A stretch of 64,000 nt of DNA from Catellatospora sichuanensis (GTDB lineage: Bacteria; Actinomycetota; Actinomycetes; Mycobacteriales; Micromonosporaceae): contig NZ_ML660191.1 in NCBI RefSeq assembly GCF_007483665.1, positions 1 through 64,000 of the forward strand, in the 5' to 3' direction. This document shows, piece after piece, positions 1,732 through 54,511 of the stretch. The stretch's first letter is position 1. Each line of letters opens with the position of its first letter. Below the pieces are notes generated by a model. It was given only the letters and a program-made list of their open reading frames with translations. It made no database searches and was not told the origin of the DNA. The position numbers and the translations under genes were made by a program.

Positions 1732-3024
1732 TCACCGGCTGATCTGCGGACGCACCGCGATGGAGGCTCGGCTGTGGGGAGGAAACAGAGCGGCGGCGCT
1801 TTGTACGTCCTCGACCGTAACGGCACCAATCAGTTGGGGAAGATCGTTGATAAGTCCGGGGTTGGCCCGCTGCAGCTCCAGCACCCCCATACGCACCGCG
1901 CGACTAATGACGGCATCAGTGCTGCGCAGCAGGTTGGTGGCGATTCGATTGCTGATACGAGTCAGCTCACTGTTGGTCAGGCCATCCATCGCGAGCCGCG
2001 TGAGCTCCTCGTCGATGACGTTCAGCACCTCCTCCGCCGACTCGTCCGGGTTGAGGTATGCCTGCAACACCAGGGCGGTGGGGTGCCGTACGTCGAACGG
2101 GTCACCCATGAAGCCCAGGTAGCCGCCGACGCTGGAGACCATGCGCTCCTTGCGGACCAGTCGCCGGACCAGCCGGGAGGCCTCCCCGTCGGTCAGGACC
2201 TCTGCCAGCACCACGCAGGCCAGGTATTGGCCGAACTGCCCGATGGGGTCGGGAACCCGCCAGGCCGCAGCGACGGCGGGCGCCGGCGCCAACTGGTCCA
2301 CGTAGTCGGTGTGGTTTGCGTTTGTCGGATCCGGCTCGGCAAATAGCGACCGTGCAGCTGCCGGCCGGGCCGGTATCGCGCCGAAGTGTTTTTCCACCAG
2401 AGTCTGGGCCTCGTCGGTGTCGAAGTCCCCGGCGATGCTCAGCACAGCGTTTCCCGACGCATAGAAGCGCTGGAAGAACTCGGTGGCGTCCTCGACAGTG
2501 GCCGCCTCCAGGTCTGCGAACGATCCGTAGCCGTCATGCGCATTGGGAAACGTGTCGAAGAGAACTGGCGGCAGTTTCAACCAGGGAAAACCACCGTAGG
2601 GGCGGTTTAGGACATTGACTCTGATCTCCTCCTTGACCACGTCGATCTGATTGCGCAGGTTCTCCTCGGTCAGCAGCGGGGCACCCATGCGGTCGGCTTC
2701 CAGAAACATCATGCGTTCGAGCGCATTGCTGGGCACCGTCTGGAAATAGTCGGTGTAATCGAGGTGAGTGGATCCGTTGAAAGTTCCCCCGGCACCCTGT
2801 ACGTACCGGAAGTGAGCCAATTTCTCGAGATTGGCAGAGCCTTGGAACATGAGGTGCTCGAACAGGTGCGCAAATCCGGTCCGGCCCGGAGGTTCGGAGC
2901 GGACGCCGACGTCGTACACGACCGCGACACCCACCAAGGGGACACTGGCATCGCGGTTGAGAACCACCCGCAAGCCATTGGCAAGGGTGAACCGCTCGAT
3001 GTGATAGTCGGTGCGTGGGATCAT
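1732..3024 (-). CDS. M16 family zinc peptidase, active subunit
   Basis: A 430-residue M16B metallopeptidase. The inverted zinc motif HLFEH lies at residues 53-57, and the third ligand is one of the glutamates in VVKEEIR about 76 residues on (132-133). Typical flanking blocks are GRTGFAHLFEHLMFQGS and GTFNGSTHLDYTDYFQ. The start at 3024 is set by a GGAG site 8 bases upstream; the frame runs further but without a start signal. It is followed by the zinc-less partner, so the two probably form a heterodimer. M16 pairs often cleave leader peptides in peptide natural-product clusters. Two short peptide genes lie just upstream on the same strand and are the nearest candidate substrates, but that link is inference. 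Confidence 0.88.
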   Translation of the reverse strand: MIPRTDYHIERFTLANGLRVVLNRDASVPLVGVAVVYDVGVRSEPPGRTGFAHLFEHLMFQGSANLEKLAHFRYVQGAGGTFNGSTHLDYTDYFQTVPSNALERMMFLEADRMGAPLLTEENLRNQIDVVKEEIRVNVLNRPYGGFPWLKLPPVLFDTFPNAHDGYGSFADLEAATVEDATEFFQRFYASGNAVLSIAGDFDTDEAQTLVEKHFGAIPARPAAARSLFAEPDPTNANHTDYVDQLAPAPAVAAAWRVPDPIGQFGQYLACVVLAEVLTDGEASRLVRRLVRKERMVSSVGGYLGFMGDPFDVRHPTALVLQAYLNPDESAEEVLNVIDEELTRLAMDGLTNSELTRISNRIATNLLRSTDAVISRAVRMGVLELQRANPGLINDLPQLIGAVTVEDVQSAAALFPPHSRASIAVRPQISR

Positions 3025-3297
3025 GACCTGGACTCCTTGCTCATTTCGGTGATGCGGTCCAGGTCGGTGCCGCATCCGGGCGCTGAAGCGCAGCCTGGTC
3101 GATGTCAGGAGGGTGCGTTGCCCTGATCGGATCGTCAGGTCGGAGTTGCTGGGCCGCAACTCTGCCGGTCGGCAGGTGCAAGCCGGCGGATTGTCAGAGG
3201 TCGGGCCGAAGCCGAAGCCGAAAGCTCATGCCTTGTGAGCTGGGGATTGCCGCGAGATCGGGTCCACGCGCAGCTCGTTTCAATCCGGCATCGCAGC

Positions 3298-50942: not shown

Positions 50943-51614
50943 ATGCCTGATCTCGAAGCCCCTCAGCTCGTCGTCAACAGCCGCATGCTCTACTTCGGCT
51001 GGGTGCCCGCCGACCCCGACGCGGTTGCGGCGCTGGTGCCCGGGGGCCTGAAACCCATGGCCAACCGCCAGGTCTTCATGAACCAGTACGTGGTCGACTC
51101 CCCGGAGCAGACCTCCGGTTTCGGCGCGTACTCGCTGACCTACATCGGCCCCGACCTGGAGGACGCGTACGCGCCCGACGGCGTCACCCCCGGCCGCTGG
51201 TGGACGCACTACTTCAACTCCAGCGCGGTGGTGCGCGACTACGCCTCCGCCCGCGGCGTGCCGGCCACCGTCGGCACCACCGCCATCGAGATCCACGGCC
51301 GGAAGCTGACCGCGACCACGACCTCCGACGGCGTGCCGGTCATCCGCACCACCGTGCGAGTCGGCCCCCAGCTCGGCGAGACCGCCCGCGGCCAGCTGCG
51401 ATACCTCACCGAGGTCGACGGGAGGTTCGTCGCGGGCAACTACCCGTTCATCTCCGAGCCGGTCGCCGACTTCGAGGTCGAGAAGCTGGAGTTCCTGGAC
51501 AAGACCCATTCCGTGTACGCGCTGCGCCCGGCGAGCCCGCTGGAGGTCACCTGGGGCTTCTACGCCCCGAGGGCCTCGTTCGCCTACCCGGGCGGTGAGT
51601 CCATCCTGGATTGA
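50943..51614 (+). CDS. Acetoacetate decarboxylase-like protein
   Basis: 223 residues: SRMLYFGWVPADPDAVAALV, then FMNQYVVDSPEQTSGFGAYS, YFNSSAVVRDYASARGVPAT and LTATTTSDGVPVIRTTVRVG. This is the ADC-superfamily beta-barrel. I cannot point to the acid-base Lys of true ADC with confidence, so it may be an ADC-like enzyme with another reaction. The ATG at 50943 has AGGAG upstream. It stands alone, followed by the TIR gene. Confidence 0.75.
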   Translation: MPDLEAPQLVVNSRMLYFGWVPADPDAVAALVPGGLKPMANRQVFMNQYVVDSPEQTSGFGAYSLTYIGPDLEDAYAPDGVTPGRWWTHYFNSSAVVRDYASARGVPATVGTTAIEIHGRKLTATTTSDGVPVIRTTVRVGPQLGETARGQLRYLTEVDGRFVAGNYPFISEPVADFEVEKLEFLDKTHSVYALRPASPLEVTWGFYAPRASFAYPGGESILD

Positions 51615-51637: not shown

Positions 51638-52429
51638 ATGAGCGGGCCGGTGTTCATCAGTTTCAGTCGTGAACACGACGCTGCCTACGTCGGGCGGCTG
51701 GCCGCCCACCTCGTGGCAGGCGGGCTGTCCATGCGGTACGACACGCAGCCGATGACGGACGGCTGGTGGTCCACCTACACCCGGGCACAGCTCGACGGCA
51801 GCTCGGCCGTCGTCGTGGTGATGACGCCCGCCGCGTCGCACGACGGCTGGGTCGCCCGCGAGATCGACCACGCCCGGCTGCTCGGCCGGCCGATCGTGCC
51901 GCTGCTGCTGGCGGGCGAGCCGTTCCCGGCGCTGTCCGGGTACGCGCACGAGGACGTCACCGGCGGCCGCCTGCCCGGCCCGGAGCTCGTCCGGCGACTG
52001 CACAGGGCGCTCGGCAACGTCCCGCCGCAGGCGGCCGAGCCCACGGCGAGCAGCGCGTTCACCGTGCCGATCCGCGGCGGCGCGACGGGCCTCACCGTCG
52101 GCATCGAGGTGCGCGGCGCGATGTTCATGCCGCTCATCGAACGCGGTCAGGCCGTGCCGTGCGCGCGTACGGAGGTGTTCACCACCGCTGACGACGACCA
52201 GCCCGTCATCCAGGTGCGCGTCTTCCAGGGCCAGAGCCCGGCCGTCGCCGCGAACGAGTCCCTGGGCGCATACGAGCTGCTGCTCGAACCGGCCCCGGCC
52301 GGCGTGCCGCAGATCGGGGTGAGATTCGAGGTGACGGAGTCGGGGGCCTTCCGCCTCACCGCCGCGCACGCCGACGGCCGCGAGGTGCCGGTCAGGCTGC
52401 TGCCGGGCAAGGCCACCGCTTCTCACTGA
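51638..52429 (+). CDS. TIR domain fused to an Hsp70 (DnaK) substrate-binding domain
   Basis: 263 residues. Residues 1-125 are a TIR domain: SGPVFISFSREHDAAYVGRL, and HDGWVAREIDHARLLGRPIV with the probable catalytic Glu75 in W-x-x-x-E. Residues about 154-247 closely follow DnaK's peptide-binding beta-sandwich: GIEVRGAMFMPLIERGQAVP, ARTEVFTTADDDQPVIQVRV, VAANESLGAYELLLEPAPAG and VPQIGVRFEVTESG. The Hsp70 ATPase domain and lid are missing. Enzymatically active bacterial TIRs consume NAD in phage defence, so misfolded or foreign protein bound by the second domain may trigger the TIR. I use the ATG at 51638 (family-typical MSGPVFISFS); 51611 and 51629 are alternatives. Confidence 0.85.
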   Translation: MSGPVFISFSREHDAAYVGRLAAHLVAGGLSMRYDTQPMTDGWWSTYTRAQLDGSSAVVVVMTPAASHDGWVAREIDHARLLGRPIVPLLLAGEPFPALSGYAHEDVTGGRLPGPELVRRLHRALGNVPPQAAEPTASSAFTVPIRGGATGLTVGIEVRGAMFMPLIERGQAVPCARTEVFTTADDDQPVIQVRVFQGQSPAVAANESLGAYELLLEPAPAGVPQIGVRFEVTESGAFRLTAAHADGREVPVRLLPGKATASH

Positions 52430-52489: not shown

Positions 52490-54283
52490 TCAGCCGTCCT
52501 GTCCGCGCAGCTGTTCGGCCAGGGCGGCCAGTCGGCGGCCGTAGGCTTCGCCGTCGCGGCGGCCCAGCGGCGTACGCTCCCAGATGTCGCGGTCGGCGTT
52601 CTCGCGGAAGTCGGCCTCCCAGTACAGGGTGCCGTCGGCCGCCCACTGCGAGTCCACGGCGAACCCGCCCGGTGCGGGCCCCAGTCCGTCGCCGACCCCG
52701 AACAGCGACTGCGCCAGCGCGGTGCGGTATTCGGTGCGGTGGTAGAGCTGTAGGAACGAGTCCTCGTCGCCGACCAGGGGCAGCAGCACGGGCAGGGTCT
52801 CCTCGCGCAGCAGGCGGCTCTGCGGATACTGCCAGGTGACGCCCTGCCAGCGGGGGAACGCGTTGACGGTGTCGAAGTCGAGCACCCGGCAGTCGTGCAG
52901 CGCGTCCATCGCGGCGACCGGCCGGTGGCCGTTGCCGGCCCGGATCCGCCAGGTCGGCCGGCGCAGCAGCCGCAGCAGCACGTCGTCGTGGTAGGACGCG
53001 ACCGCGGCCAGGCTCGCCGTTTTCAGTGCCAGCAGCGCCGGGTAGTGCTGCAGGTCGGTCCAGCGTGGGTCCGGCTCGCCCTCGGGGCGGCGGCGGGCGC
53101 GCATGAGCTGCTCGATGACGCGCACCCACAGGGCGGTGTGCTGGCGGTCGCGGTCGAGGTAGACCCCGTGGGCGAGCAGCCGCATCAGGGTGTCGCAGCG
53201 GGCGCGTACGTCGTCATGGACCCGCTGCCAGGTCGCGGGATCCTGGGCGGGTGGCTCGGGCGGCATGGTGCGCAGGTAGTCGCGCAGCCGCCGGATCTCG
53301 GTGTCGAACAGGTCGGCGACCTCGATGTGCTTGACCGGGTCGGGCAGCAGCCGCTTGAGCCGGGCCACCGCCATGGCTTTGGTCAGCGGCGGGTCGGCGA
53401 GGTCGTCGAGGGCTTCGAGCCGGTTGACGAGGTCGGGGAAGAACTGCTCGGCGGCGGCGCCGGTGATGACGTGGGCGCGGTGCTGCGCCACGAGGCGCTT
53501 GGCGATCTGGCCGAGTTCGCCGCGGGACGCCCAGAACAGCGGGTAGCGCCGGGAACGGGTGCCTTCGAGGGCGGCGACCAGGCCGTGGTCCCAGTCGCCG
53601 GACCAGCCGTTGACGATAAGGCCGTATTCGTCGAGCACGCGTTCGAGCAGCCGCTGCCATGGCGCGGAGTAGGCGCTCAGCTCTTCGACGGTGTTGAGCT
53701 GGTCGGTGCGGGCGTAGTCGCCGTGCAGTTTGATGACGGTGCAGCGGGCGTGGGGGAGCGGCTCCATGCCCTCGATCGCGGCGGGGCTGGCGATGACCTG
53801 CGGGAAGATGCCCTCGGCTTCGAGTGCCTGTTCGATGAGCCGGTCGAAGTTGGTGGTGATGATGACGCGCACCGCGCCGCGGGCGACCAGCGCGGCGATG
53901 GCGCGGTGGGCGGCGCCGGGGACCTTGACGCCCTGCTGGCGCTCCTCGGCGGTGGGCTCGAAGAACGATGCGAGCAGCGCCCGCCGTGCCGCGGGGGTGC
54001 TGGCCAGCGATTCCAGCAGCGCGGAGTAGCCCAGTGGTGCGCCGTCGCCGTGTTCGGTCCACCACTTCTCGATGTCGGCGTCGGTGGGCATGGCCTCCCC
54101 GGCGGCGGCGGCGACCTTCGCGACCAGTGCGGTCACGACGCCCCAGCCGGTGGGCACGCCGGCCGCCGTGGACGTGCCGGAGCCGAGCAGCAGGGCGTAC
54201 ACGCCGGGTTGTGCGTGTACGGCGGTGGCCAGGCTGATCCGGGCGTCGAAGACGGGTCGGCGGGGGGCGAGGAGGTCGTCCAT
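52490..54283 (-). CDS. SIR2-like domain protein (possible defence NADase)
   Basis: About 597 residues. The SIR2-like core includes YALLLGSGTSTAAGVPTGWG (the GSGTS NAD-binding loop, residues 34-38), RVIITTNFDRLIEQALEAEG (Asn145, Asp147) and CTVIKLHGDY (His188). The remaining 300 residues are helical, with no signal or membrane segment, and end RRLAALAEQLRGQDG. Stand-alone SIR2-like proteins of this sort are NAD-cleaving defence effectors or DNA-linked sensors. The frame runs upstream past the start; ATGs at 54283, 54295 and 54301 are possible, and none has a ribosome site. The long upstream stretch is antisense to the CDF gene and is excluded. Confidence 0.85.
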   Translation of the reverse strand: MDDLLAPRRPVFDARISLATAVHAQPGVYALLLGSGTSTAAGVPTGWGVVTALVAKVAAAAGEAMPTDADIEKWWTEHGDGAPLGYSALLESLASTPAARRALLASFFEPTAEERQQGVKVPGAAHRAIAALVARGAVRVIITTNFDRLIEQALEAEGIFPQVIASPAAIEGMEPLPHARCTVIKLHGDYARTDQLNTVEELSAYSAPWQRLLERVLDEYGLIVNGWSGDWDHGLVAALEGTRSRRYPLFWASRGELGQIAKRLVAQHRAHVITGAAAEQFFPDLVNRLEALDDLADPPLTKAMAVARLKRLLPDPVKHIEVADLFDTEIRRLRDYLRTMPPEPPAQDPATWQRVHDDVRARCDTLMRLLAHGVYLDRDRQHTALWVRVIEQLMRARRRPEGEPDPRWTDLQHYPALLALKTASLAAVASYHDDVLLRLLRRPTWRIRAGNGHRPVAAMDALHDCRVLDFDTVNAFPRWQGVTWQYPQSRLLREETLPVLLPLVGDEDSFLQLYHRTEYRTALAQSLFGVGDGLGPAPGGFAVDSQWAADGTLYWEADFRENADRDIWERTPLGRRDGEAYGRRLAALAEQLRGQDG

Positions 54284-54511
54284 GGCGGCAACCATAGACA
54301 TCCGTGGCGACAGAGTGGGGAGTGCGTCCGCGGGCCGACAGCGCGCAGTCGTGTCATTGCGTACGGTGGTGCGGCGATGACATCCGTTGCCATGTTCATG
54401 TTGCAATGAATTCATGGTTCGCTGTACTGTCGGCGTGCCGCGCGCGTCGGCGACACTATTTCCGCTGCTGGGGCGCACGATGTCAGCATTCCGGGCACGA
54501 GGTGGACGACG

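What the first reader, a model, noticed from the sequence alone, without database searches (positions are those of the whole stretch)
51638..52429. TIR domain joined to an isolated Hsp70 substrate-binding domain
Seen: a TIR part with the catalytic Glu and a second part that follows DnaK's beta-sandwich substrate-binding domain (VFTTADDDQPVIQVRV, GVPQIGVRFEV), with the ATPase domain and lid missing. Known: active bacterial TIR domains cleave NAD in anti-phage defence. Inference: the chaperone part could be the sensor for foreign or misfolded protein and set off the TIR. I know of no described system of this kind.
Basis: partly seen in the sequence, partly recalled or inferred. Interest (0 to 1): 0.82.

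Follow-up and report, generated by a model that had tools for sequence, protein, structure and literature searches.

The report
TIR enzyme with Hsp70 peptide-grip sensor
A soil bacterium carries a small gene joining a predicted NAD-cutting TIR domain to just the peptide-gripping part of an Hsp70 chaperone; if active, it could let the cell use unfolded or foreign protein as an alarm.

Summary
Window 51638-52429 encodes 263 aa: a TIR domain (5-109) and an Hsp70 beta-sandwich substrate-binding domain (SBDbeta, about 143-258), with no Hsp70 ATPase and no lid. The presumed catalytic Glu (E75) aligns with SARM1 E642 and is present in 7 of 7 copies that reach it, own included. The host is Catellatospora (Micromonosporaceae). 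Six intact, one truncated and one deletion-remnant copies were found in 354 family genomes, none in the wider samples searched. The TIR domains form one clade (100/99), so one fusion is likely. The SBDs group with three free-standing SBDbeta proteins, apart from the host's DnaK (97/95). The gene sits in a variable slot: one sister species has an empty site. It evolves faster than its flanks (dN/dS 0.42-0.58 against 0.07-0.30). The adjacent SIR2 gene is not an obligate partner. Best reading: a single-gene conditional suicide or stress effector of the known TIR-plus-sensor kind, with a new sensor module. Neither NADase activity nor peptide triggering is shown. New variant of a known kind.

The parts
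51638..52003 (+). TIR domain (aa 1-122); presumed catalytic Glu75 in W-V-A-R-E, Trp71, Asp35
   Evidence: Pfam TIR_2 5-109; aligned to SARM1; fold match
52004..52063 (+). variable linker (aa 123-142)
   Evidence: 0 of 20 positions invariant in 6 intact copies; pLDDT under 50 at 131-139; pairwise dN/dS 0.89-2.37 on 18 codons, six pairs
52064..52429 (+). orphan Hsp70 SBDbeta (aa 143-258) with short tail; no ATPase domain, no lid
50943..51614 (+). conserved flank: acetoacetate-decarboxylase-like gene (host gene, not part of the system)
   Evidence: PF06314, E 5e-5, below the curated cut-off; 91-94% identical in relatives
52490..54340 (-). conserved flank: SIR2-domain protein (start codon not settled), PADLOC candidate PDC-S65; convergent with the TIR-SBD gene
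   Evidence: PDC-S65 E 1.8e-194; in 8 of 11 Catellatospora genomes, not tied to TIR-SBD

Best explanation
It is a single-gene conditional NADase. Shown by sequence and model: a TIR fold with a conserved Glu, a flexible linker, and an SBDbeta fold whose core pocket residues stay hydrophobic. Inferred: the SBD grips exposed hydrophobic peptide stretches. Without an ATPase or lid it cannot trap and release clients by the Hsp70 cycle, so binding is probably weak and fast, and only clustered targets (aggregates, unfolded or massively made phage protein) gather several copies. Crowding brings TIR domains together, switches on NAD cleavage, and stops the cell's growth or kills it before a phage can spread.
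For: Both folds confirmed. E75 falls on the SARM1 catalytic column: it aligns in 'WVxxE', and the SARM1 E642A entry 7cm7 scores 3.4 bits below the same-length entry 7cm5, which fits (titles). E75, W71 and D35 are invariant in 6 of 6 intact copies, and E75 also stands in the truncated G009 copy. Positions equivalent (recalled DnaK pocket numbering) to I401, F426, V436, I438 and I472 are I/L, F, I/L/V, V and I/L in 6 of 6. Of four TIR cousins (46-50% identical) scanned with Pfam, two carry WD40, one TPR and one no further domain after the TIR, so the SBD sits where putative sensor modules sit. Accessory-gene behaviour: empty site in G001, remnant in G010, different loci in G007, G009 and Rhizocola. 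Fast evolution against flanks. Precedent for chaperone-based capsid sensing: CmdTAC, PMC11618068 (abstract seen).
Against: No activity, binding or phage data. No neighbour common to the different loci among those scanned. dN/dS under 1 but high could partly be relaxed constraint, and two of eight copies are broken. No TIR-SBD was seen on plasmids or phages. Three relatives of the SBD stand alone without a TIR, so the SBD has some use of its own.
Confidence: 0.45

Rival explanations
1. Integrated decoy: the SBD imitates host DnaK, and a phage or foreign protein that targets the DnaK substrate site or its co-chaperones binds it and trips the TIR. The ligand is a specific attacker, not unfolded protein in general.
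For: SBD sequence changes fast (dN/dS 0.39-0.63 in six pairs) while the fold and core pocket residues persist; only the part of DnaK that grips clients is kept.
Against: No attacker known. The SBD is not a recent copy of the guarded protein: the orphan SBDs stand apart from both Hsp70s of the host (L002, L003) at 97/95.
Confidence: 0.2
2. Thoeris-like pair: the TIR makes a nucleotide signal that activates the neighbouring SIR2 protein.
For: A SIR2 protein lies close by in convergent orientation and is a PADLOC defence candidate.
Against: SIR2 is present without an intact TIR-SBD in G001, G002 and G010. G009 has TIR-SBD but no SIR2 match (where 8 of 11 genomes match); neither has G369 (no positive control in that call). 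In G007 the two lie about 94 kb apart. The genes are convergent, the SIR2 is 94-97% identical where TIR-SBD is 67-68%, and Pfam shows no SLOG-type sensor in the 583 aa of SIR2 protein given at E<=1.
Confidence: 0.08
3. Proteostasis or developmental switch without phage role: TIR-SBD senses aggregation in ageing or sporulating hyphae and triggers programmed cell death or NAD signalling.
For: Same anatomy; actinobacterial host; PMC7159879 (passages seen) links chaperones and TIR effectors to thresholded conflict systems in multicellular prokaryotes.
Against: A core developmental gene should not be missing from most of the family (7 hits in 354 genomes) or from a sister species with an empty site.
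Confidence: 0.15
4. Decaying or structural fusion with no sensing: the SBD is only a scaffold or dimerisation tail.
For: Truncated SBD in G009 and deletion in G010; high dN/dS.
Against: Core pocket positions kept hydrophobic; 35% of SBD positions invariant, about as many as in the TIR (37%); SBD dN/dS below 1 in 6 of 6 pairs.
Confidence: 0.12

Closest known systems
Single-protein bacterial TIR with C-terminal modules (TIR-WD40, TIR-TPR) in Actinobacteria
   Same: TIR 46-50% identical, N-terminal, followed by a putative sensor module
   Different: The module here is an Hsp70 SBDbeta; no such architecture was found outside Micromonosporaceae in the samples searched
Hsp70/DnaK
   Same: SBDbeta fold, 33% identity in the structural alignment and rmsd 1.0-1.3 A to DnaK in the top three rows
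   Different: ATPase domain and lid absent
Lidless Hsp70 of Planotetraspora mira (L037:6921-8396)
   Same: Branches between the orphan SBDs and all other Hsp70 SBDs in the tree (long-branch warning); also without lid
   Different: Keeps the ATPase domain (Pfam HSP70 profile 1-494)
SARM1 / TIR-SAVED / TIR-STING
   Same: TIR joined to a regulatory part; PDB sequence matches of the TIR profile at E 3e-8 to 3e-5
   Different: Their sensors read nucleotides (recalled), not peptides
CmdTAC (toxin-antitoxin-chaperone)
   Same: A chaperone serves as phage-protein sensor (PMC11618068, abstract)
   Different: Three proteins, a SecB-type chaperone (recalled) and an mRNA ADP-ribosyltransferase; no TIR, no Hsp70

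Membership tests
TIR NADase | TIR fold | tested here: met
TIR NADase | catalytic Glu in helix C | tested here: met
   E75 aligned to the SARM1 E642 column (that E642 is catalytic is recalled); invariant 6 of 6
TIR NADase | NAD cleavage | not testable with these tools
   needs enzyme assay
Hsp70 chaperone | SBDbeta | tested here: met
Hsp70 chaperone | N-terminal ATPase domain | tested here: not met
   HSP70 profile matched only at 390-486 of 599
Hsp70 chaperone | helical lid (SBDalpha) | tested here: not met
   protein ends at SBDbeta; no helix of 4 or more residues after residue 124 in the model
Hsp70 chaperone | peptide binding | not testable with these tools
   core pocket residues conserved in kind; binding not measured
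Thoeris | constant SIR2-SLOG (ThsA) partner | tested here: not met
   nearby SIR2 not co-inherited; no SLOG found by Pfam at E<=1; ThsA profile matched only in the SIR2 part at E 8.6e-7
Anti-phage defence system | location in defence islands | tested here: inconclusive
   beside the PADLOC candidate PDC-S65 in the window, G005 and G006 and one gene away in G003; no such gene in the stretches of 17.5-18 kb of G007, G009 and Rhizocola; PADLOC was run on only one other neighbour each in G007 and G009 and none in Rhizocola
Anti-phage defence system | protection against phage | not testable with these tools
   needs infection assay

The most novel reading that the evidence does not exclude
A bacterial immune or suicide receptor whose pathogen sensor is the client-binding half of Hsp70 cut loose from its ATPase, so that the state of being unfolded, or an attack on DnaK itself, is the alarm signal; and a family of free-standing SBDbeta proteins of the same group that may act as dampeners or decoys.
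Probability: 0.3. Interest if true: 0.85.

Novelty: new variant of a known kind. Interest (0 to 1): 0.58.

Why it matters
Known bacterial TIR proteins read nucleic acids, nucleotide signals or specific viral proteins (recalled). A TIR coupled directly to a chaperone's peptide grip would be a very simple unfolded-protein alarm, testable in one gene, and would tie protein quality control to bacterial cell suicide.

Tried and rejected
Chimera or frameshift artefact: rejected, six intact copies in six genomes. Obligate SIR2 partner: rejected. Widespread family: not found. Phylum sample: 1 of 396 genomes (own) at E<=1e-35, with 6 candidates per genome scored in the rows shown. A first genome-contig scan with the single protein found nothing; the second, with two peptide patterns, gave 48 confirmed loci, of which 4 are TIR-SBD (3 intact, 1 remnant; Catellatospora and Rhizocola) and 44 match only about query residues 99-263, i.e. 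the SBD and what lies just before it; 21 of those 44 were opened and all look like Hsp70, 2 of them cut at a contig end. That scan did not return G003, G007 or G009 (whether they are in the collection is not known), so it is not exhaustive. Class sample of 394 genomes with the SBD profile: own genome plus 15 others at 110.6-113 bits; 14 of the 15 have open frames of 624 aa or more, and the other (469 aa) is a DnaK cut at the edge of its stretch. Mobile-element carriage: viral contigs none (TIR part alone); plasmids 0 of 163 and phages 0 of 33 matching records covered at 80% or more, the rows listed being DnaK or without annotation. Sigma-70 promoter scan: none found. Common neighbours: none shared between the different loci among the neighbours scanned. 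Literature: six searches for such a system gave none (listings capped); two searches asked about PDC-S65 and CmdTAC. Passages of PMC7159879, PMC3710099, PMC8195603, PMC7075850 and PMC9503650 were seen, and the abstract of PMC11618068. Tree rows: one of 24 Hsp70 loci asked for (L002, the host's main DnaK) fell out because the motif search missed it; one search missed it again; one search put it in and the result stood.

Full report

Key residues. The TIR profile aligns to SARM1 so that E75 falls on the Glu of 'WVHKE'; the E642A entry (7cm7, 30.1 bits) scores 3.4 bits lower than the entry of the same length 7cm5 (33.5 bits). E75, W71 and D35 are invariant in 6 of 6 intact copies. That E642 is the SARM1 catalytic residue is recalled; the title of 7cm7 names the mutant. 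In the SBD, positions equivalent to DnaK I401, F426, V436, I438 and I472 (recalled pocket numbering) stay hydrophobic in 6 of 6; the arch residue M404 is R, G or K, but a mycobacterial DnaK has K there too. A Cys in a 'VPC' motif (C175) is present in 10 of 10 orphan SBDs read (6 intact TIR-SBD, the truncated G009 copy, 3 free-standing) and in 0 of 15 Hsp70 rows of the alignment.

Where else. The host genome has one TIR-SBD. In the genus, 6 of 11 genomes match at E<=1e-34, one of them (G009) truncated inside the SBD; a seventh, G010, keeps only a deletion remnant. In the family 7 of 354 genomes and 2 of 44 genera match at E<=1e-32. Named relatives: Catellatospora coxensis, C. vulcania, C. paridis (remnant), Rhizocola hellebori. 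In a phylum sample, 1 of 396 (own). With an SBD profile on 121 family genomes, 8 orphan SBDs (5 TIR-SBD, 3 free-standing) score 154.8 bits or more and every other listed row 111.3 or less; the list is cut at its weak end, and two listed rows with shorter open frames (G061 399 aa, G373 470 aa) were not opened. The free-standing proteins are about 115-145 aa: G026 (L029:8209-8577 -), G174 (L133, about 2827-3192 +), G172 (L134:5059-5493 -).

Origin. The seven TIR domains form one clade against 20 other TIRs (100/99, 100% of 200 bootstrap trees; the tool says its bootstrap had not settled), consistent with one fusion. Pfam on four of the others: WD40 twice, TPR once, no further domain once. The SBDs of TIR-SBD and of the free-standing proteins fall on one side of a branch against 23 Hsp70 SBDs (96/93) and, with both host Hsp70s included, against 15 (97/95); a lidless Planotetraspora Hsp70 lies between. 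One search carries a long-branch warning. Within the group, neither TIR-SBD nor free-standing SBDs are resolved as a clade, so which came first is open.

Context and evolution. In four Catellatospora genomes the gene lies between an ADC-like gene and a convergent SIR2 gene; in two of them another gene lies in the same slot (an MFS transporter in G005, a solute-binding-type protein in G003). In G001 the two flanking genes are adjacent with nothing between: an empty site. Flanks there are 91-97% identical, TIR-SBD 67-68%. By Nei-Gojobori on all six pairs of four genomes, TIR-SBD has dS 0.39-0.55 and dN/dS 0.42-0.58; flanking SIR2, ADC, BCAT and CDF genes (4 or 5 genomes) have dS 0.11-0.29 and dN/dS 0.07-0.30. 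The higher dS also fits exchange of diverged copies, so speed of evolution and horizontal replacement cannot be separated here. In G007, G009 and Rhizocola the gene lies elsewhere next to other genes.

Mechanism. Conserved Glu, flexible linker, retained groove and a slot used by WD40 or TPR modules in cousins point to a conditional TIR effector with a peptide-binding sensor. Loss of ATPase and lid means no ATP-driven trapping; avidity on clustered clients is a natural way to switch on TIRs, which act as assemblies (recalled). All steps after fold and residues are inference.

Known or new. TIR plus sensor in one chain is a known kind. An Hsp70 SBD as that sensor was not found in six full-text searches of an open-access library, whose longer listings were seen only in part. 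PMC7159879 describes Hsp70 with GTPase-centred conflict systems and one form lacking the peptide-binding domain, the opposite truncation (passages seen).

Noticed in passing
window 52490-54340 (-): SIR2-domain protein matching PADLOC candidate PDC-S65 (E 1.8e-194), present in 8 of 11 Catellatospora genomes; no paper in the library names PDC-S65.
   Followed up: partly
L029:8209-8577 (-): Free-standing SBD whose start MPGMTGPVF resembles the TIR-SBD start (MSGPVF, or MPGMSGRVF in L027) joined straight to the SBD start, as if the TIR had been lost in frame.
   Followed up: no
P0001 residue 175 and equivalents: Invariant Cys in a VPC motif in 10 of 10 orphan SBDs, absent from 15 of 15 Hsp70 rows; a redox role is possible.
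   Followed up: no
L031:7663-8451 and L134:6177-6962: SpoU-type methylase (Pfam) just upstream of the Rhizocola TIR-SBD; a SpoU-like gene (by eye only) two genes from the G172 free-standing SBD. May be chance.
   Followed up: no
L029:605-5447 (-): HerA-like ATPase (PADLOC mad8 5.8e-17), a small protein and a DUF559 endonuclease-like gene about 2.8 kb from the G026 free-standing SBD: a defence-like cassette.
   Followed up: partly
L037:6921-8396 (+): Hsp70 of Planotetraspora mira that ends after SBDbeta: a natural lidless Hsp70.
   Followed up: partly
L134:3511-5031 (-): Methyltransferase-like 507 aa gene directly downstream of the G172 free-standing SBD, weak PADLOC mad2 match (E 2.4e-5).
   Followed up: no
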